From the IMG/VR virus record IMGVR_UViG_3300003321_000583, positions 1,256 through 31,729 of that record: a DNA stretch of 30,474 bases. The stretch is one strand, 5' to 3'. How positions within the stretch are numbered: position 1 is the first letter of the stretch; each line of letters starts with the position of its first letter. The notes under the pieces are model-generated. The model was not told where the DNA came from and did not search any database. It was given only the letters and a program-made list of their open reading frames with translations. This DNA comes from a virus. Below are positions 143 through 30,292 of this stretch, piece by piece. Made by a program: the position numbers and the translations under genes.

Positions 143-170
143 GCCGAGGCGAGATTACTCCCGCCTCGGC
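143..170. terminator. Hairpin between convergent genes, probable terminator
   Basis: A perfect 9-bp stem (GCCGAGGCG at 143-151 with CGCCTCGGC at 162-170) has a 10-nt loop. It sits between the converging genes ending at 118 (+) and 177 (-). On the minus transcript it is followed by a short TTTCG run, so minus-strand termination is the more likely use. There is no long U tract. Confidence 0.55.
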
Positions 171-176
171 CATGGT

Positions 177-506
177 TCAGCGCTTCGGACCGGTCACGCT
201 GCGGAGATGTTGGTTGCGAGCGTTCTGAACCTGTTGGTCAGACTGCCGGCAATCTCTGCAGACGTACGCGTACTCCTTGCGCATGTTGCACTCTGTGAGC
301 AGCCTGAAGTTCTCCCGGTCGAGCTTCTCGTTTTCCTTGTCGAGTTTCTCGGCTTCGGAGCGAGCTTCTTCGAGTTCCTTCGAACCTTCAGATCGCATAG
401 CTTCCAGCTCAGCGCAGAGAGCCTTGATGCTTTCGGCTTGCCGTCGAATCACCAGGTAGCCTGCCAATCCTGCGGCAACCACGAAGCAAACAATCATCAT
501 CGCCAT
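177..506 (-). CDS. Small membrane-anchored coiled-coil protein with a CxxC
   Basis: 109 aa. Residues 4-20 are a hydrophobic membrane segment (IVCFVVAAGLAGYLVI). Residues about 22-75 are a charged heptad-like coiled coil (LEEARSEAEKLDKENEKLDR). A CxxC (C83, C86) follows and the tail is basic. I chose the inner ATG at 506 because GAAAGGG and GGTGGG lie just upstream; an ATG at 545 has no ribosome binding site. The layout matches the neighbour at 641-1015, so the two look like diverged paralogues. One N-terminal membrane helix plus a coiled coil also fits an inner-membrane spanin, but the CxxC is unusual for that. Function is unknown. Confidence 0.6.
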   Translation of the reverse strand: MAMMIVCFVVAAGLAGYLVIRRQAESIKALCAELEAMRSEGSKELEEARSEAEKLDKENEKLDRENFRLLTECNMRKEYAYVCRDCRQSDQQVQNARNQHLRSVTGPKR

Positions 507-525
507 CGTCCCACCGTGCCCTTTC
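507..525 (-). repeat. Ribosome binding region, inverted partner of 117-133
   Basis: On the minus strand this is the leader immediately before the start at 506 and contains GAAAGGGCACGGTGGGACG. It is nearly complementary to the 3' flank of the same gene at 117-133. Confidence 0.5.
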
Positions 526-576
526 AGTCGCGAGACTATCGGCATCGTGTGGCGTGAGCGAGCAGGGTCCCCACGT

Positions 577-594: not shown

Positions 595-640
595 ACAGAG
601 TCTCGGCCTGAGCAGCTCCATGCCGCCCAAGCCGAGTTTG

Positions 641-1015
641 CTACGCCTCGATCGCTGAGAACGTCAGCGTATCCGTCTGGTCATCCACGCACCGGCCGCA
701 GACGACAACCGGCTTCGGCTTCCCGACTTCAGGCCAGACATACGTCGTATGGTACCGGCTGCCAGCGGAGACCGGGCTGTAGCATTCGTCGCAGAACACG
801 ACCGCCTCGTAGATCAGGTTCTCCGCGTCGGTCAGCTCGTCGTCTAGCGCTGCCAGACTCGCGACCAGCTCTCGCCGATCCGCTTCGCTCTTCTCGAGCG
901 CCTGCGACGTCGTCTTGAGCCGCCGTAGAAGGTCGGCGTACTCCTGCCGCAACCTCGCTATACCAACGGCGCAAGCGCCGAGACCAAGAAGCACAACCAG
1001 AGTTCCGTACCCCAT
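641..1015 (-). CDS. Small membrane-anchored coiled-coil protein with zinc ribbon
   Basis: 124 aa from the ATG at 1015, which has AAAGGG 9 nt upstream; a GTG at 1045 abuts the previous stop and is an alternative. Residues 5-20 form a membrane segment (TLVVLLGLGACAVGIA). Residues about 21-68 form a coiled coil. Residues 75-109 hold two Cys pairs (C75/C78 and C106/C109), as in a zinc ribbon. The order membrane helix, coiled coil, Cys pair matches the gene at 177-506. It follows the zinc-ribbon gene at 1046. The function is unknown; a spanin-like or other lysis role is possible but not supported by a motif. Confidence 0.6.
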   Translation of the reverse strand: MGYGTLVVLLGLGACAVGIARLRQEYADLLRRLKTTSQALEKSEADRRELVASLAALDDELTDAENLIYEAVVFCDECYSPVSAGSRYHTTYVWPEVGKPKPVVVCGRCVDDQTDTLTFSAIEA

Positions 1016-1016
1016 A

Positions 1017-1031
1017 CTCCACCACCCTTTC
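1017..1031 (-). repeat. Ribosome binding region, exact inverted partner of 580-594
   Basis: The minus strand reads GAAAGGGTGGTGGAG directly before the ATG at 1015. In the transcript it could pair over 15 bp with the 3' flank of the same gene. Confidence 0.65.
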
Positions 1032-1045
1032 GCGACCAGCCTCAC

Positions 1046-1552
1046 TCACGCAGCTGACGGCGGCGAGCAGGGTGCCGGCATAGTGACGGTGCAGCGGTGG
1101 CAGTGAATGGACCCGTCCGGAAGCTTCATGACCGGCTTGCGGACATCCAGCGCACAGGCGCACGAGGCACAGTGAGCGCCGTTGGCAGGCGCGGCAGCAG
1201 TCAGACCGGCCAGGAGGTTGTCGAGCTCGTCGACAGCCGTCTGCGCCTCGAGAGCGGCCTGCGTCTCAGCCTGCGTCTCGGCCAAGTCGCCAGCGTACGC
1301 GACGATCGCGCGCTCGATGTACGCGTGAACCGTGGTCCCGACCAGCGCGACGCGGACCTCGTCCTTGGTGACGTCGTTCGGATCCACAAGCAACTCAAGG
1401 ACATAACCGTCGCGAGCGCGGTAGACCTTGCCGCTCTCCTTCAGCTCGACCTGATTCACGCGGATGACTTGCCGCTGGTCGATCAGCGCCGTGACGGCAT
1501 CCTCGATGCTCGTGCCCTTACTCGTGCCCCAGATGTTGCCTTCGTAACCCAT
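1046..1552 (-). CDS. Hypothetical protein with C-terminal zinc ribbon
   Basis: 168 aa. The N-terminal 95 residues are mixed alpha/beta (YEGNIWGTSKGTSIEDAVTA, then RVNQVELKE). Residues about 90-115 are a Gln/Ala/Glu-rich helix. The C-terminus has C128, C131, C133 and C151, C154 in a zinc-ribbon spacing. The start ATG has a strong AACGGGGAG ribosome binding site at 1557-1565, the same nine bases as in the three plus-strand cassettes at 11.5-12.9 kb. No known family is recognised. Confidence 0.6.
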   Translation of the reverse strand: MGYEGNIWGTSKGTSIEDAVTALIDQRQVIRVNQVELKESGKVYRARDGYVLELLVDPNDVTKDEVRVALVGTTVHAYIERAIVAYAGDLAETQAETQAALEAQTAVDELDNLLAGLTAAAPANGAHCASCACALDVRKPVMKLPDGSIHCHRCTVTMPAPCSPPSAA

Positions 1553-1577
1553 GTAACTCCCCGTTCTTCCTCGTGAC

Positions 1578-10454: not shown

Positions 10455-11222
10455 ATGAAAGAACGAGGAGCTTTGGTGTTGGTTGCCGCGCTTGCTGGCG
10501 CGTGCGGGGGTGGTGATTCGAAGCCGATGGCGGCTGCAGCTGGCGGCGGCGGCATGGAGACGCCAGCCGAGTCCGATAGCGGCGCGCTGCCCGAGCGTGA
10601 TGCAGGTGTGGACGCTCGAGCTGTGGAGCCCGAGCCCGGTGGAGCTGGTTCCGCAGCTGGTAGCGGCGGTGCCGGTGGCGCTGCCGAGCAGGCCGGAGAG
10701 ACTTCCTACGCCAACGGTGGAGCTGGTGCGCCAGCGCCAGCAGGCGGGCAGGGCGGAGCAGGCAGCGGCGGAACAGCCAGCGTTCCGACCGGAGGCCAAC
10801 CAGCACCCGCGGAGCACGTTCTTTGGTCGCAGAACTGGACTGTGGCGATCCACTCGTCCAGCGCGGCGAAAGGCTATCCGAATGCGACGATGGGCCTAGC
10901 GCTCGATGCCGGCGACTTCTGCACTTTCGGGTTCAGCGGAGCGCCTAGCGGAACTTCTCAAGATTTCCAGACTGATGGAGCCTGCATCACGCAGGCCGCG
11001 AATGTGGCGTCGGGCGTCGCCCTCATCTTCGACAGCAATGGGATGAACAGCCACGGCAGCGGCGGCCGAGCCCCACTCTCCGGCTGGACCGAAGCCGTCA
11101 CCGGGCACACCGTGACCAAGCTCCGTCGAACGCAGACCTACACCATCCAGCTGCTAGGAGCCGGTGACACCAGCTACAACTACGCGGATTTTGAAGGTAA
11201 GTGGGAGGCGATAGGTCGGTAG
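10455..11222 (+). CDS. Putative lipoprotein with Gly/Ala-rich linker
   Basis: 255 aa. Residues 1-16 are a short signal peptide ending in LAGA before Cys17, a lipobox-like site. Residues about 18-120 are low-complexity Gly, Ala, Ser and Pro (GGAGSAAGSGGAGGAAEQAG). Residues about 121-255 form a globular, probably beta-rich domain with two cysteines (DAGDFCTFGFSG, DGACITQAAN). Long linkers of this kind are typical of Myxococcota outer-membrane lipoproteins. It lies on the opposite strand inside the tail operon, as expected of an added (moron) gene. Phage-encoded lipoproteins often block superinfection; that role is only inferred. Confidence 0.65.
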   Translation: MKERGALVLVAALAGACGGGDSKPMAAAAGGGGMETPAESDSGALPERDAGVDARAVEPEPGGAGSAAGSGGAGGAAEQAGETSYANGGAGAPAPAGGQGGAGSGGTASVPTGGQPAPAEHVLWSQNWTVAIHSSSAAKGYPNATMGLALDAGDFCTFGFSGAPSGTSQDFQTDGACITQAANVASGVALIFDSNGMNSHGSGGRAPLSGWTEAVTGHTVTKLRRTQTYTIQLLGAGDTSYNYADFEGKWEAIGR

Positions 11223-11417: not shown

Positions 11418-11521
11418 GCTCGGACCCTAGCACCCTGCTCGCCGTCCGGTAACGGTCCACTTACGTTGACTCTCGGTCAGTGAGGATCGGCAGTCGATCC
11501 GCACGAAACGGGGAGTCACGC
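11223..11521. other. Intergenic region upstream of cassette 1
   Basis: About 300 bp with no plus-strand gene. It holds the doubtful minus-strand frame at 11154-11417. Near 11475 begins the leader of the first small plus-strand cassette (GGTCAGTGAGG then a hairpin). I see no clear terminator after the lipoprotein, only a weak inverted repeat around 11237-11271. Confidence 0.4.
11475..11515 (+). promoter_or_regulatory. Cassette 1 leader: AGTGAG motif, hairpin, strong RBS
   Basis: GGTCAGTGAGG (11475-11485) is followed by a perfect 6-bp hairpin (GGATCG, loop GCAGT, CGATCC; 11484-11500) and the ribosome binding site AACGGGGAG (11507-11515), 6 nt before the ATG. The same order occurs upstream of the next two plus-strand genes. 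Confidence 0.6.
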
Positions 11522-11716
11522 ATGACGTACGAAGTTGAGGTTACGAACGTCACCACTGGCGAAAAGCTCAACGCGGTGATCGAAGAAACCAAACCTTGCC
11601 AAATGTGCGAAGGCACAGGCTGGGACGGTGGAGAGGTCGGGCGTGGAGCACGTCGCGACTGCGACGATTGCCTTGCATGCGGCGGCACTGGTGCCGAGTT
11701 GCCGGAGGTGTGCTGA
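11522..11716 (+). CDS. Small DnaJ-type zinc-finger protein
   Basis: 64 aa. The first 30 residues are two beta strands (TYEVEVTNVTTGEKLNAVIE). Residues 35-64 hold CQMCEGTG and CDDCLACGGTG, the CxxCxGxG signature of the DnaJ cysteine-rich domain, here as a minimal two-motif version. Such single fingers occur in phages and bacteria as small RNA- or protein-binding modules. The exact role is unknown. It overlaps the next gene by TGATG, so the two are coupled. Confidence 0.65.
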   Translation: MTYEVEVTNVTTGEKLNAVIEETKPCQMCEGTGWDGGEVGRGARRDCDDCLACGGTGAELPEVC

Positions 11717-11868
11717 TGACTTTCACACGAAAGCGTCAGGTCCGTGGGCGCAAGGCCTGGAACCGCATGCGTAGGTGGGCGAAGCACTTCGGATTCGGCG
11801 TGGAGAACAGCGTCGATCCGATGGTGGTTGCCAAGATCTACGGGCGGCGTAACCAGCGCGTCGCGTGA
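11716..11868 (+). CDS. Small basic protein, possible nucleic-acid binder
   Basis: 50 aa, with 13 Arg/Lys mostly in the first half (TRKRQVRGRKAWNRMRRWAK). It is translationally coupled to the DnaJ-type finger gene and followed by a strong hairpin. High basic charge suggests binding to nucleic acid. No known fold is evident. Confidence 0.5.
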   Translation: MTFTRKRQVRGRKAWNRMRRWAKHFGFGVENSVDPMVVAKIYGRRNQRVA

Positions 11869-11874
11869 AATCCG

Positions 11875-11911
11875 GCGGGGACATCAAGCTTCGGCTTGGT
11901 GTCCCCGCTTT
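11875..11911 (+). terminator. Cassette 1 terminator hairpin
   Basis: A 15-bp stem (11875-11889 and 11894-11908) is closed by a C(UUCG)G tetraloop and followed by TTT. One pair is G-U on the plus RNA and would be A-C on the minus RNA, so it is built for the plus transcript. Confidence 0.8.
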
Positions 11912-11920
11912 CGCGCCGGT

Positions 11921-11935
11921 CCTCACTGACCATCA
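11921..11935 (+). repeat. Cassette border repeat, copy 1
   Basis: The plus strand reads CCTCACTGACCATCA, 13 nt after the hairpin of cassette 1. Close copies follow the hairpins of cassettes 2 (12437) and 3 (12916). It is also the inverse, with one change, of GGTTAGTGAGG at 11990-12000. Confidence 0.6.
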
Positions 11936-11989
11936 GCATCGGCGCCCTGGTTGCCAGCTTCTGAGTTCCCGTGCTCACCTTCCCGTGAA

Positions 11990-12046
11990 GGTTAGTGAGG
12001 CGATGGTTGCCTCACGGCGCCACCGTCTCGCTTCAACAACGGGGAG
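11990..12046 (+). promoter_or_regulatory. Cassette 2 leader: AGTGAG motif, hairpin, strong RBS
   Basis: GGTTAGTGAGG (11990-12000) overlaps a perfect 7-bp hairpin (GTGAGGC, loop GATGGTT, GCCTCAC; 11995-12015). The RBS AACGGGGAG (12038-12046) is 8 nt before the ATG. The same GTGAGG could instead pair with CCTCAC in the border repeat at 11921, so two alternative folds are possible. Confidence 0.55.
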
Positions 12047-12054
12047 ATGGCGTC

Positions 12055-12369
12055 ATGGAACACGGACAACGTGTAGAGGTGCAATTGGGTCTCATCGACA
12101 CTGCCACTGGCCAGATGCTGTTCGAGCCAGAGGAGCACATCATCGAGAACGAGCACTCGTTCTGCGAGATGACCGTGATCGCAAAGGATTACGGCGTGGA
12201 GTTGGGACGCCTGTTGCGAGCCAGCAAGCTCACTCAGGATGGACTCGACCGGCTGATCGTCTGCTTCGTACGCGGCATGTCGGCTTGCCGACCGCTGAGC
12301 ACGGAAGAGCGAGCATGGTTGGCCGACGACGTCTTCAACGCGGCTCAGCCGTGGTTGGGACCTAACTGA
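12055..12369 (+). CDS. Hypothetical cassette protein, 104 aa
   Basis: 104 aa, acidic, no membrane segment. The N-terminal half is beta-rich (VEVQLGLIDTATGQMLFEP) and the C-terminal half is helical (DGLDRLIVCFVRG, LSTEERAWLADDVF). The start is set by AACGGGGAG upstream; an in-frame ATG at 11995 lies inside the leader hairpin and is unlikely. It is monocistronic between leader and terminator. No family is recognised; its setting suggests an accessory (early or host-modifying) gene. Confidence 0.6.
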   Translation: MEHGQRVEVQLGLIDTATGQMLFEPEEHIIENEHSFCEMTVIAKDYGVELGRLLRASKLTQDGLDRLIVCFVRGMSACRPLSTEERAWLADDVFNAAQPWLGPN

Positions 12370-12377
12370 GCGTTGCG

Positions 12378-12415
12378 CCACCGAGCATTCTGGTTCGCCA
12401 GGGTGCTCGGTGGTT
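12378..12415 (+). terminator. Cassette 2 terminator hairpin
   Basis: A 16-bp stem (10 perfect bp, two U-G pairs, 4 bp) is closed by a UUCG loop and followed by only a short T-rich stretch. The U-G pairs would be A-C mismatches in the minus RNA. Confidence 0.75.
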
Positions 12416-12436
12416 GTGTCCCGGGTGACTGTCGCT

Positions 12437-12450
12437 CTCACTGACCTTCA
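12437..12450 (+). repeat. Cassette border repeat, copy 2
   Basis: CTCACTGACCTTCA differs from copy 1 at a single base and lies 515 bp from it, 22 nt after the cassette 2 hairpin. Confidence 0.6.
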
Positions 12451-12504
12451 CAGCGATCCACCCTCCGCGACTAAACGCTGACAACATGGTGTTCTGACCC
12501 CGAA

Positions 12505-12551
12505 GGCAAGTGGGCGGTAGCGCGAGCTACCTCCACGCAAAAAACGGGGAG
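12505..12551 (+). promoter_or_regulatory. Cassette 3 leader: AGTGGG motif, hairpin, strong RBS
   Basis: GGCAAGTGGGC (12505-12515) is followed by a 6-bp hairpin with a GCGA loop (12516-12531) and the RBS AACGGGGAG (12543-12551), 4 nt before the ATG. The distance from border repeat to motif end is about 79 bp, as in cassette 2 (about 80 bp). Confidence 0.55.
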
Positions 12552-12555
12552 CAAC

Positions 12556-12852
12556 ATGGAAGCATCAGCACTGCATGAGCCAACTCGAAGGATGAAGGCA
12601 CCGAAGTCTGGTGAAATCGAACAACCACAGCAGGTGTTCGGTCCGCTGGAGCAGGCAGCTCACAACTTCGGGTTGGAGCAACGTCAGCGCTTGTTGGACG
12701 GCGAGACGAAGACTGAGGTTATGACCTCACTCAACGTTCACGTCGCACTAGCAGACTCGAACAACGATCTGTCTGCGAAGCAGATGGAGCGCCTGGCTCG
12801 TGTCGCGTATCGAGCTGCTGGCATCCAGCGGCTCGACATGCACTACGACTGA
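12556..12852 (+). CDS. Hypothetical cassette protein, 98 aa
   Basis: 98 aa, mostly helical and polar. Residues 1-30 are likely disordered (EPTRRMKAPKSGEIEQPQQV). Residues 30-70 contain FGPLEQAAHNFGLEQRQRLL, and the C-terminus is another helix (SAKQMERLARVAYRAAGI). No membrane segment, cysteine cluster or catalytic motif is seen. It shares leader and hairpin design with the two preceding cassettes but not its protein sequence. Confidence 0.6.
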   Translation: MEASALHEPTRRMKAPKSGEIEQPQQVFGPLEQAAHNFGLEQRQRLLDGETKTEVMTSLNVHVALADSNNDLSAKQMERLARVAYRAAGIQRLDMHYD

Positions 12853-12858
12853 CGCTCT

Positions 12859-12897
12859 GGTCACCGGATGCTCGCCTCGCGCGGGTGTCCGGTGACC
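12859..12897 (+). terminator. Cassette 3 terminator hairpin
   Basis: A stem of about 17 bp (10 perfect outer pairs, then inner pairs including three G-U on the plus RNA) has a CTCGC loop. It has no U tract. It also separates the plus-strand cassettes from the converging minus-strand gene that ends at 12917. Confidence 0.65.
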
Positions 12898-12915
12898 GTC
12901 GTGATGTCGCTGCCG

Positions 12916-12929
12916 CTCACTTGCCTTCA
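12916..12929 (+). repeat. Cassette border repeat, copy 3 (degenerate)
   Basis: CTCACTTGCCTTCA follows the third hairpin by 19 nt and matches copy 2 except at two bases. It overlaps the end of the minus-strand gene at 12917, so no fourth plus-strand cassette follows. Confidence 0.45.
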
Positions 12930-13138
12930 ACACTTGAACGCGGACCAGAGACATCGAACCAGTCCTTGCGCCGGTAGAACTCGCTCAAGGTTCGCTCCTG
13001 CAGGCCGTCAACGTCGAGTCTGACGCCGAGGCGCAGAAGGATTGCAGCACCCCAGCAAACCAGACAGGCCGTGGCAAGCATCAACTTGCCGCGCCAGTTG
13101 ACGCGGACGGTGAATACGGCGCCTGTTGGTTCAGCCAT
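12917..13138 (-). CDS. Small single-pass membrane protein
   Basis: 73 aa. The ATG at 13138 lies one base after the upstream stop. Residues about 19-39 are a membrane segment (LMLATACLVCWGAAILLRLG) preceded by basic residues (VNWRGK), giving an N-in orientation. The C-terminal 35 residues are soluble and charged. It could be a lysis, superinfection or tail-associated membrane protein. No family is recognised. Confidence 0.55.
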   Translation of the reverse strand: MAEPTGAVFTVRVNWRGKLMLATACLVCWGAAILLRLGVRLDVDGLQERTLSEFYRRKDWFDVSGPRSSVEGK

Positions 13139-13139
13139 A

Positions 13140-13580
13140 TCAGCTCCACGGAATCGGTGAGCCACCAGCCGATGGCGTCGCAGTACCGGTGCGCGCCCAA
13201 GCGTCCAGCGCGGTTGCTATCTTCTGCGCCGCCTCAGCCGCGGTCTCCGGATACGGTTCGGCGAACAATGCCGCCCAGTTTACCGGGGCAGGCGGAGGCA
13301 CAGCGACGAACGTTGGCGCCATCCCAGCGCCCACGGTTGCCGCGAAAGCGGTGCAGGCAGCGTCCATGGCCGAAGCTGCCGATGGAAGCGCGAACGCCGC
13401 CGCCAGCTGTGTCTGCAGGGTTGCCTGAGCAGCAGCGACTGTCGTGCTCGGTGGAGCTACCGGTGTGAAATACGAGCCGATCGCCGAGACCCAGAGGGAG
13501 GAGCAATCGGCGATGGTGGCGCCTGGGTGCTCGAATGTGGATTGCAGGGCTGACTGCAGTGTGGAGACGACTAGAGGCAC
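13140..13580 (-). CDS. Ala-rich hypothetical phage protein
   Basis: 146 aa from a GTG that overlaps the previous gene by 10 nt. It is Ala/Pro/Thr-rich. The N-terminus is helical (VSTLQSALQSTFEH) and the C-terminus, ETAAEAAQKIATALDAWART followed by PSAGGSPIPW, looks like small structural proteins seen near phage tail genes. It is part of a tight cluster with the genes at 13571 and 12917. The function is not identified. Confidence 0.6.
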   Translation of the reverse strand: MPLVVSTLQSALQSTFEHPGATIADCSSLWVSAIGSYFTPVAPPSTTVAAAQATLQTQLAAAFALPSAASAMDAACTAFAATVGAGMAPTFVAVPPPAPVNWAALFAEPYPETAAEAAQKIATALDAWARTGTATPSAGGSPIPWS

Positions 13581-13771
13581 GGTTCTGTATCAAACGACAC
13601 TTGAACGCCGAAGCGTTGCGTGAGCATGGCCGCGAGCGCACTGGCGCTGGCTTTGACTCTCGCGGTCCTCCACGCGTCGAAGGCTTCGGAATCGCCGTGG
13701 ACACTGCGAACCAATCGACGCCGCAAGGCGTTGCGTTGCTTCCGTAGGCGCACCGCTCGACGTCTAGTCAA
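13571..13771 (-). CDS. Small basic hypothetical protein (TTG start)
   Basis: 66 aa. The frame is open upstream through the DHH gene, but the likely start is the TTG at 13771, which overlaps the DHH stop (TTGA) and has AGG seven nt upstream. The N-terminal half is strongly basic (RRRAVRLRKQRNALRRRL); the rest is mixed. An inner GTG at 13753 is an alternative. It is coupled to the DHH gene before it and the Ala-rich gene after it. Function is unknown. Confidence 0.45.
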   Translation of the reverse strand: MTRRRAVRLRKQRNALRRRLVRSVHGDSEAFDAWRTARVKASASALAAMLTQRFGVQVSFDTEPCL

Positions 13772-14388
13772 TGCGCAACCTGCAGCCACGCAGCGAACGT
13801 GCTGTTCACCGGCAGCCTGAAGCCAGACGCTTGGGCATGGCCACCGCCGCCAAATCGCTTGGCGAACTCGGAGCAATCGGTTCCTGGCTTCGAACGCAGC
13901 GAGCAGTTCACGCTGCCGTCTTTTGTCCGCTGCCAACCAAGCGCGATTGACTCGCCGCTTTGCTCCAGGGCCGCGTTTAGAACGTCCGACACGCCAGTGT
14001 AGGTCACGTTCACGCACGCCATGCGGAGACCGGTGCCGTCTGCGTCTTCGACGATGTACAGGTTACGGAGCGCGTCTCTTACGTAGTGCTTGAGGTACAG
14101 GTGAGCGCCCTTGGCTTCTGCAAGCAGGCTGTCCATCGGCGCGCTCGACAGCGCATCCCAGGCTTCGAGCGTATGCTCGGTAAGCCGGATACGCAGCGAC
14201 AACTCCTCGGAGTTCGGCAACTTGAAGCGCCAGAGGTCGCGGTCTTCTACGTAGTCGACAACCCAAGGCCGTGGCTCAGCTGGATGAAAATGGTCCCAGG
14301 TGATGCCGGCACCGCTGCGGTTCATGTCGAATGTGCAGTAGCTCAGCCCGGCGCAATCGGCTTCGGCTGTCTTGTGATGGTCGAGCAC
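13768..14388 (-). CDS. C-terminal fragment of an NrnB-like DHH phosphoesterase
   Basis: 206 aa if it begins at the GTG at 14388, which has no visible ribosome binding site. It is in the same frame as 14407-14604, separated by one TAA. It holds the DHH motif (LDHHKTA), the DRDLW metal/substrate motif and the DHHA1 motif FGGGGHAQASGF near the end, all as in the NrnB oligoribonuclease / cAMP-cGMP phosphodiesterase family. Alone it lacks the first metal-binding motif and should be inactive. Together with the upstream piece it would be a complete enzyme of about 278 residues. Confidence 0.75.
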   Translation of the reverse strand: MLDHHKTAEADCAGLSYCTFDMNRSGAGITWDHFHPAEPRPWVVDYVEDRDLWRFKLPNSEELSLRIRLTEHTLEAWDALSSAPMDSLLAEAKGAHLYLKHYVRDALRNLYIVEDADGTGLRMACVNVTYTGVSDVLNAALEQSGESIALGWQRTKDGSVNCSLRSKPGTDCSEFAKRFGGGGHAQASGFRLPVNSTFAAWLQVAH

Positions 14389-14406: not shown

Positions 14407-14409
14407 TTA
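14407..14409 (-). other. In-frame TAA inside the DHH phosphoesterase
   Basis: Codon 66 of the reconstructed gene is TAA, read after CTGCGT-type context (TTG CGT TAA GTC GCG). There is no length change around it: 12 residues separate the FSYPR element from the stop region and the DHH box follows at normal spacing. TAA also ends the tape measure gene at 16483, so it is a true stop in this genome. Confidence 0.8.
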
Positions 14410-14604
14410 ACGCAAACACTCCATCTTCACGCGTGGATAGCTGAAGTCCACGATGAAGACCTGACGGTCTTTTGCCAGCTCGTACGGCGGATCCTCTCCA
14501 TACGTCCCAAGGAACAGCTCATGGTCACCGAGCGCTCGCGCCGCAACCCAAGCCGCGGTGAAGCCGTCCGGGCAGTTGCCGTGATAGATGATGAGTGGAG
14601 TCAT
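14407..14604 (-). CDS. N-terminal fragment of the same DHH phosphoesterase
   Basis: 65 aa ending at an in-frame TAA. It carries motif I (YHGNCPDGFTAAW) and motif II (VFIVDFSYP) of NrnB-type DHH phosphoesterases. The protein then stops 10 codons before the DHH motif, which continues in the same frame. By family pattern the stop replaces one ordinary codon. This is a nonsense mutation, a sequencing error, or a recoded stop. The enzyme class hydrolyses short oligonucleotides or cyclic nucleotides. Confidence 0.7.
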   Translation of the reverse strand: MTPLIIYHGNCPDGFTAAWVAARALGDHELFLGTYGEDPPYELAKDRQVFIVDFSYPRVKMECLR

Positions 14605-29616: not shown

Positions 29617-29850
29617 TCACGACTTGACGGTGATGTTACCGCTGGTACCGGTCGTATACGTCCAGCGAACACCGGTGCCAGGATACGTCGGTACGAACAT
29701 CGGATCCTGCCACCAAGGCGAGTTCGGTACGATGTACGGATCCACGGGGGTGTAAGGCACGGGTTGGAGCGATGGCGCGCACGTGCAGCGCTGCACATCA
29801 GGCGACAGCGAAGCGCCACAACGAGTGCAAATCCAACCCTCACGACTCAT
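29617..29850 (-). CDS. Small zinc-ribbon protein, third of a cluster
   Basis: 77 aa, start overlapping the previous stop (ATGA). Residues 7-30 carry CTRCGASLSPDVQRCTC, one zinc ribbon. The rest is Pro/Tyr/Thr-rich (VPYTPVDPYIVPNSPWW) and ends in beta-prone residues. It resembles the N-terminal half of its two upstream neighbours and has lost their second Cys set. The function is unknown. Confidence 0.6.
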   Translation of the reverse strand: MSREGWICTRCGASLSPDVQRCTCAPSLQPVPYTPVDPYIVPNSPWWQDPMFVPTYPGTGVRWTYTTGTSGNITVKS

Positions 29851-30074
29851 GTGATAGCCCCATTGCAGTCAGCACACTCAGAGTCGACGTTGCAGACGTA
29901 GATCGCGAAGCAGCGCGGGCAGTGCCATCGCTCATCGGCTGGCGCTACTTCCGGAGCATCCGGATAGCCACCGGGGAATGACGCTGGCAGCTGCAGCGCG
30001 CTTTGGCACGTTTGGCAGACTCCGTTGCACTCGCGCACAGTTCCGCACGGGCAGATTCCCCAGTACGTCGTCAT
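29847..30074 (-). CDS. Small double zinc-ribbon protein, second of a cluster
   Basis: 75 aa from the ATG at 30074 (ATGA overlap). It has two Cys sets: YWGICPCGTVREC with CQTC, then WHCPRCFAIYVC with CADC. It is a paralogue of the next upstream protein, sharing YWG.C.CGT.R.C, PA.FP.GYP and W.CP.C. A longer frame begins at 30146 but lies over the neighbour. Function unknown. Confidence 0.65.
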   Translation of the reverse strand: MTTYWGICPCGTVRECNGVCQTCQSALQLPASFPGGYPDAPEVAPADERWHCPRCFAIYVCNVDSECADCNGAIT

Positions 30075-30292
30075 GCTGGCGGGTTGCAGAAGCTGCAGGT
30101 AGACGAACGCGGCGAGTGGATCCGATGGCATGTCGGACATTCCCAACCCTGCAGCGGTGGCGGAGCAAGCGGAGGCCCCGGATAGCCATACGGAAAGGCC
30201 GCCGGGATGGCCGCTTGCGAGCCGCAGTTAGCGCACTGCCATGTGCACGGCCGTTGCGTGCCGCACGAACATACCCCCCAGTAGTCGTTCAC
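30071..30292 (-). CDS. Small double zinc-ribbon protein, first of a cluster
   Basis: 73 aa from a GTG preceded by GGTGA. It contains WGVCSCGTQRPCTWQCANCG and WECPTCHRIHSPRSSTCSFC, two zinc-ribbon-like Cys sets joined by a Pro-rich linker (PYGYPGPPLAPPPLQG). The next gene is its paralogue. Such cysteine knuckles bind zinc and often nucleic acid or proteins. It lies upstream of the head morphogenesis gene. Confidence 0.65.
   Translation of the reverse strand: MNDYWGVCSCGTQRPCTWQCANCGSQAAIPAAFPYGYPGPPLAPPPLQGWECPTCHRIHSPRSSTCSFCNPPA

What the first reader, a model, noticed from the sequence alone, without database searches (positions are those of the whole stretch)
11475..12929. Array of three plus-strand mini-cassettes with shared leaders, borders and hairpin ends
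Three units lie head-to-tail on the plus strand inside a minus-strand tail operon. Each has an AGTGAG-type motif, a leader hairpin, the identical RBS AACGGGGAG, one or two short ORFs and a long terminal hairpin. After each hairpin comes CTCACTKRCCWTCA (11922, 12437, 12916). The encoded proteins are unrelated, so the non-coding frame is conserved while the cargo differs. That suggests exchangeable accessory cassettes. Repeats and hairpins are seen; the cassette model is inference.
Basis: partly seen in the sequence, partly recalled or inferred. Interest (0 to 1): 0.75.

Follow-up and report, generated by a model that had tools for sequence, protein, structure and literature searches.

The report
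Phage accessory genes with end-paired mRNAs
In a little-known phage genome at least five small accessory genes each sit in the same kind of frame, whose two ends would pair in the messenger RNA, which suggests small exchangeable genes that carry a built-in RNA control like that of some bacterial toxin messengers.

Summary
In detail: three plus-strand units (11475-12929) share a leader hairpin, the motif AACGGGGAG 4-8 nt before an ATG, short ORFs, a long hairpin after the stop codon and a CTCACTGACCTTCA-type border. Each border is the reverse complement of that unit's own leader, and the match is unit-specific: 17/17 pairs with its own partner, 10-13/17 with another unit's, 8 of 17 columns with compensatory changes. 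Arm differences are of G-U rather than A-C type on the coding strand (14:1; control genes 258:275), so the conserved thing is an RNA structure: the mRNA ends pair into a panhandle. A second cluster on the other strand (116-1031) holds two more such units, with RBS and start codon inside the stem. In a relative (capsid 58%, baseplate J 52% identical) the same site holds one unrelated lipoprotein gene; in Thermus and Meiothermus phages it is essentially empty, so this is an accessory-gene (moron) site. Best reading: accessory genes whose mRNAs are held or processed through 5'-3' pairing, as in hok, aapA or icaR mRNAs. The structure is well supported; function is inferred. Exchange of cassettes between phages was not seen: no second phage with these units was found.

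The parts
11475..11491 (+). U1 left arm (5' panhandle arm) GGTCAGTGAGGATCGGC
   Evidence: inverted partner of 11915-11931, 94% complementary; 17/17 standard pairs with G-U
11480..11504 (+). U1 leader hairpin, mutually exclusive with the panhandle
   Evidence: fold of the first 50 nt; sequence
11507..11515 (+). U1 ribosome-binding-type motif AACGGGGAG
11522..11716 (+). U1 ORF a, 64 aa, CxxCxGxG-type motif
   Evidence: weak DnaJ zinc-domain match below cut-off
11716..11868 (+). U1 ORF b, 50 aa, overlaps ORF a (TGATG)
11875..11908 (+). U1 long hairpin after the stop codon
   Evidence: I4; no T-run
11915..11931 (+). U1 right arm (3' panhandle arm); border motif continues to 11935
11985..12011 (+). 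U2 left arm
   Evidence: pairs with 12424-12451 with one bulge; all differences inside these arms are G-U type, the single A-C type one lies just outside
11995..12015 (+). U2 leader hairpin GTGAGGC/GCCTCAC overlapping the left arm
   Evidence: sequence; not the minimum-energy fold of the first 50 nt
12038..12046 (+). U2 AACGGGGAG
12055..12369 (+). U2 ORF, 104 aa
   Evidence: AlphaFold model of mean pLDDT 69, no fold match
12378..12413 (+). U2 long hairpin
   Evidence: I5
12424..12451 (+). U2 right arm
12502..12522 (+). U3 left arm
   Evidence: 21 nt, no mismatch counting 2 G-U
12510..12536 (+). U3 leader hairpin
12543..12551 (+). U3 AACGGGGAG
12556..12852 (+). U3 ORF, 98 aa, predicted three-helix domain after about 29 residues of low confidence
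   Evidence: coding RNA unusually structured, codon-shuffle z -5.1
12859..12897 (+). U3 long hairpin
   Evidence: I6
12908..12928 (+). U3 right arm
1009..1031 (-). UB left arm, holds the RBS and start codon
641..1015 (-). UB ORF, 124 aa, hydrophobic N-terminus, two CxxC
602..636 (-). UB hairpin after the stop codon
580..594 (-). UB right arm (core; pairing extends inward about 7 nt more)
500..526 (-). UA left arm, holds the RBS and start codon
177..506 (-). UA ORF, 109 aa, hydrophobic N-terminus, coiled-coil-like, CxxC
143..170 (-). UA hairpin after the stop codon
116..140 (-). UA right arm
1046..1565 (-). 168-aa gene just upstream of UB, shares AACGGGGAG (1557-1565), no arms of its own
11192..11215 (+). 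orphan copy of the arm at the 3' end of the lipoprotein ORF, perhaps the remnant of a further unit (partner-like TCCACTTACGTTGA at 11458-11471)
   Evidence: partner match 11/14 read by eye

Best explanation
These are accessory (moron-type) genes of a tailed phage, probably temperate, each built as a small mRNA unit whose 5' leader and 3' end are complementary over 17-28 nt. In the transcript the ends pair into a panhandle that closes the unit, next to a long hairpin after the stop codon. In U1-U3 the left arm can also take part in a local leader hairpin, so nascent RNA could fold the leader first and re-pair once the 3' arm is made. In UA and UB the ribosome-binding site and start codon lie inside the panhandle, so full-length RNA should be hard to translate until the 3' arm is trimmed or the duplex is cut, for instance by RNase III. 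Shown: the arms, their unit-specific covariation, the G-U polarity, the hairpins, the site's variable content in relatives. Inferred: transcription through both arms, translational silencing or duplex processing, expression in the lysogen, and spread of the frame by recombination at the shared arms.
For: Arm scores of the five units 36-52 against control-gene flanks mean 21.6, sd 3.6, with 1 of 577 at 36 or more. U1-U3: 17/17 standard pairs own, 10-13 swapped, 8 columns with two-sided changes. G-U to A-C type differences 14:1, sign test p about 0.001; controls 258:275. Coding-strand duplex stronger than the opposite strand's in all five. Whole-unit folding z -6.3 to -10.0 against mean -0.8, sd 1.1 elsewhere in the genome. 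The last 30 nt add 29-40 kcal/mol, and the first 32 nt pair mostly with the last 45. Adding the right arm lowers predicted exposure of SD and AUG in UB (0.29 to 0.00; 0.53 to 0.03) and of the AUG in UA (0.44 to 0.01). Accessory site. Relative carries an integrase. Precedents: PMC3868564 (icaR), PMC6733600 (aapA, hok).
Against: No transcript data: it is not known that one RNA spans both arms, and if the long hairpin terminates transcription the right arm is not in the mRNA. In U1-U3 the predicted SD exposure does not consistently fall when the right arm is added, so simple RBS masking does not cover cluster 1. Only five units in one genome; arms within a cluster share ancestry, so the tests are not independent. 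The G-U test assumes equal transition rates on both strands. Arm scores alone overlap the best genome-wide chance hits; it is their placement, number and covariation that carry the argument. With codon-preserving shuffles only the U3 coding region is unusually structured.
Confidence: 0.55

Rival explanations
1. Mobile DNA cassettes: the arms are terminal inverted repeats recognised by a transposase or recombinase acting in trans (MITE-like).
For: Arms bound each unit as inverted repeats, are shared between units, and the cargo differs; the block is missing from relatives.
Against: Arm differences are of G-U type on the coding strand (14:1), unexplained by DNA ends; no target-site duplications in the flanks (by eye); no transposase among the genes examined; in UA and UB the arm is the RBS and start region.
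Confidence: 0.15
2. RNase III processing stalks: a polycistronic transcript is cut at long-range stems to release each unit as a separate, end-protected mRNA, as in pre-rRNA; translation is not the regulated step.
For: Stems of 17-28 bp enclosing each unit; spacers of about 50 nt between units; hairpins without a T-run allow read-through; would also suit U1-U3, where the SD is not masked.
Against: No RNA data; in UA and UB cutting in the stem would remove or damage the RBS.
Confidence: 0.2
3. Ordinary morons: leader hairpin, RBS, gene and terminator; the arms are leftovers of recombination borders with no function.
For: Site and orientation are typical of morons; each unit has a strong hairpin after the stop codon.
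Against: Unit-specific compensatory changes in 8 of 17 columns and the G-U polarity point to continuing selection on pairing; no sigma-70-like promoter and no T-run terminator was found.
Confidence: 0.1

Closest known systems
hok and aapA type I toxin mRNAs (5'-3' long-distance interaction)
   Same: Ends of the mRNA pair; a metastable 5' hairpin can precede the end-to-end fold; the full-length RNA is translationally inert until its 3' end is trimmed (PMC6733600).
   Different: The cargoes are 50-124 aa proteins without mutual similarity, several with CxxC motifs, not tiny toxins; no antitoxin RNA is known; the same frame is reused around different genes in one genome.
icaR mRNA of Staphylococcus aureus (5'-3' UTR pairing, RNase III)
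   Same: 3' UTR pairs with the Shine-Dalgarno region, hinders initiation and makes an RNase III substrate (PMC3868564); UA and UB have that geometry.
   Different: 7-nt motif on one chromosomal gene there; 17-28 nt arms on at least five phage genes here.
Phage morons (accessory loci)
   Same: Extra genes in the late region, antisense to lytic genes (U1-U3), variable between relatives.
   Different: No promoter or T-run terminator recognised; end-pairing arms; tandem array.
Integron gene cassettes
   Same: Array of small different genes in a shared frame.
   Different: No attC-type site or integron integrase seen among the genes examined; arms at both ends rather than one site per gene. Not searched for with a dedicated model.

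Membership tests
phage moron | extra gene or genes between conserved phage genes, absent or different in relatives | tested here: met
phage moron | own promoter | tested here: inconclusive
   no sigma-70-type site, but host and its promoters are unknown
phage moron | factor-independent terminator | tested here: inconclusive
   strong hairpins but none with a T-run
phage moron | expression in the lysogen | not testable with these tools
   needs RNA-seq
hok/aapA-type toxin mRNA | 5'-3' end pairing of the mRNA | tested here: met
   predicted and supported by covariation only:
hok/aapA-type toxin mRNA | pairing masks translation start | tested here: inconclusive
   predicted for UA and UB, not for U1-U3
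hok/aapA-type toxin mRNA | small hydrophobic toxin | tested here: not met
   50-124 aa; only UA and UB have a hydrophobic N-terminus
hok/aapA-type toxin mRNA | antisense RNA antitoxin | not testable with these tools
   U1-U3 lie antisense to the late operon, but no transcript data
transposon or MITE | terminal inverted repeats | tested here: met
transposon or MITE | target-site duplication | tested here: not met
   flanks read by eye
known structured RNA family | match to an Rfam model | tested here: not met
   none in the window up to E = 1

The most novel reading that the evidence does not exclude
A portable RNA frame: an end-pairing mRNA scaffold, kept by compensatory change, into which a phage lineage loads unrelated small genes, so that every newly gained accessory gene comes under the same cis-acting RNA control.
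Probability: 0.4. Interest if true: 0.8.

Novelty: new variant of a known kind. Interest (0 to 1): 0.6.

Why it matters
End-to-end pairing of an mRNA is known for a few toxin and regulator genes. Finding it as the shared frame of at least five unrelated accessory genes in one phage would show how newly gained genes can be kept quiet or processed by a built-in RNA device instead of a dedicated promoter, and would give a sequence-independent signature (unit-specific arms, G-U polarity, hairpin before the 3' arm) for finding accessory genes that similarity searches miss.

Tried and rejected
Baseplate J and cassette proteins U2 and U3 as queries in viral contigs: no relatives; UB gave one weak partial match, L145. 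The phage collection gave no match for U1a, U2 or U3. Pfam, PHROGs, PADLOC and Rfam: nothing convincing. RNAduplex energies over long gene flanks do not discriminate, because GC-rich flanks give long bulged duplexes; a strict helix score was used instead. Genome-wide inverted-repeat scans are noisy, and single arm scores fall within shuffle maxima. I first took the coding regions of U1-U3 to be highly structured (core z), but codon-preserving shuffles leave only U3 as an outlier. AlphaFold models of U2 and U3 and Foldseek searches gave no fold match; U2 and U3 look alike in helix layout but show no sequence similarity. The one scan of prokaryote genomes found only a Meiothermus MAG contig. MAFFT misaligned the joined arms, so pairs were counted from explicit arm alignments.

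Full report
The record. The window is 1256-31729 of a 31,729-base IMG/VR virus record. It carries a tailed-phage late operon on the minus strand: head protease, capsid, baseplate, tail fibre and endolysin by family or sequence match, with sheath and tape measure placed by gene order against Riverbug. The closest capsids in annotated phages are Thermus phage Riverbug (46%) and Meiothermus phages MMP7 and MMP17 (43%). In IMG/VR two contigs are nearer: L124 (61%) and L138, in record G001 of 52.6 kb (58%). The host is not known; the lipoprotein's style suggests Myxococcota to me, but this was not tested.

The observation. All stated features are present at the stated coordinates. AACGGGGAG stands 4-8 nt before each first ATG and also just before the ATG of a 168-aa gene at 1552 (-). 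The long hairpins are 34-39 nt and closely follow the stop codons. They lack a T-run, so the terminator scan found none.

What the borders are. Each unit's right border is the reverse complement of its own leader: U1 11475-11491 with 11915-11931, U2 11985-12011 with 12424-12451, U3 12502-12522 with 12908-12928. Outer parts of the arms are shared between units and inner parts are not, but the inner parts still match within a unit. Of 17 aligned pair columns in U1-U3, 8 differ between units on both sides and stay standard pairs; own partners give 17/17 standard pairs, swapped partners 10-13. This is covariation.

RNA or DNA. Inverted repeats alone would fit DNA ends too. Where two arms of a unit differ, the difference can be of G-U or A-C type on the coding strand. 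With a score blind to this, the five units show 14 G-U and 1 A-C type differences; gene flanks from control contigs show 258 and 275. In the ungapped cores alone I count 8 to 0. The sign test gives p about 0.001 for 14 of 15 and 0.008 for 8 of 8, with the caveats that arms within a cluster share ancestry and that mutation may be strand-biased. Coding-strand duplexes are stronger than opposite-strand ones in all five units. I therefore take the pairing to be conserved in RNA.

A second cluster. On the minus strand, UB (arms 1031-1009 and 594-580, gene 1015-641) and UA (arms 526-500 and 140-116, gene 506-177) have the same plan: arm, gene, hairpin after the stop, arm, with a spacer of about 50 nt between the units, as between U1-U2 and U2-U3. 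Their arm sequence differs from cluster 1 and contains the RBS and start codon. The five units score 36-52 for arm pairing around a gene; 577 control genes average 21.6 (sd 3.6) with one at or above 36. That one is a portal gene.

Folding. Whole units fold with z of -6.3 to -10.0 against -0.8 (sd 1.1) in other windows of this genome, mostly because of arms and hairpins; with codon-preserving shuffles only U3's coding region stands out (z -5.1). The final 30 nt add 29-40 kcal/mol, and 21-31 of the first 32 nt pair with the last 45. Adding the right arm hides SD and AUG in UB and the AUG in UA, but not consistently the SD of U1-U3. In U1 and U3 the left arm also folds into a leader hairpin; in U2 such a hairpin can be drawn but is not the minimum-energy fold of the leader.

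The site in relatives. In G001 the gene equivalent to 13140-13580 (58% identical) is followed by one lipoprotein gene on the opposite strand, unrelated to the window's lipoprotein, and then baseplate W and J. The cluster-1 arm (up to 2 mismatches) and AACGGGGAG do not occur in the 19.6 kb of G001 around that site, and the cluster-2 arm is not found in the whole record beyond one two-mismatch hit. In Riverbug and MMP7 the equivalent neighbours are 2-3 nt apart. G001 has a phage integrase, so the group includes temperate phages.

Explanation. Moron-type accessory genes, each with a cis-acting end-to-end RNA fold. The nearest precedents are hok and aapA mRNAs, where a transient 5' hairpin is replaced by a 5'-3' long-distance interaction and translation awaits 3' trimming (PMC6733600), and icaR, where 3'-5' UTR pairing blocks the SD and makes an RNase III substrate (PMC3868564). 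Membership in the toxin families is not claimed: the proteins are not small hydrophobic toxins and no antitoxin RNA is known. Moron context follows PMC7067206. The main uncertainty is whether the right arm is transcribed with the unit.

Cassette exchange. The variable site and shared arms make it plausible. It is not demonstrated, since no other phage with this frame was found.

Noticed in passing
13768-14388 and 14407-14604 (-): A DHH phosphoesterase gene is split into two ORFs that match successive parts of phrog_4771: a frameshift, stop or sequencing error.
   Followed up: no
29847-30146 and 30071-30292 (-): Two overlapping cysteine-rich ORFs are paralogues (42% identical), next to a third cysteine-rich ORF at 29617-29850.
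   Followed up: no
11192-11222: The lipoprotein ORF ends inside an orphan copy of the cluster-1 arm, and the 82-aa ORF 12917-13165 (-) ends inside U3's right arm; both read E-G-K through the arm.
   Followed up: partly
L039 4452-6014 and L020: A phage portal gene is flanked by the inverted pair GGGCTGCCTCAACGGG in one contig and a near copy in another.
   Followed up: no
L143 2618-3442 (-): The relative G001 carries a different lipoprotein gene at the same site, so lipoproteins may be favoured cargo there.
   Followed up: partly
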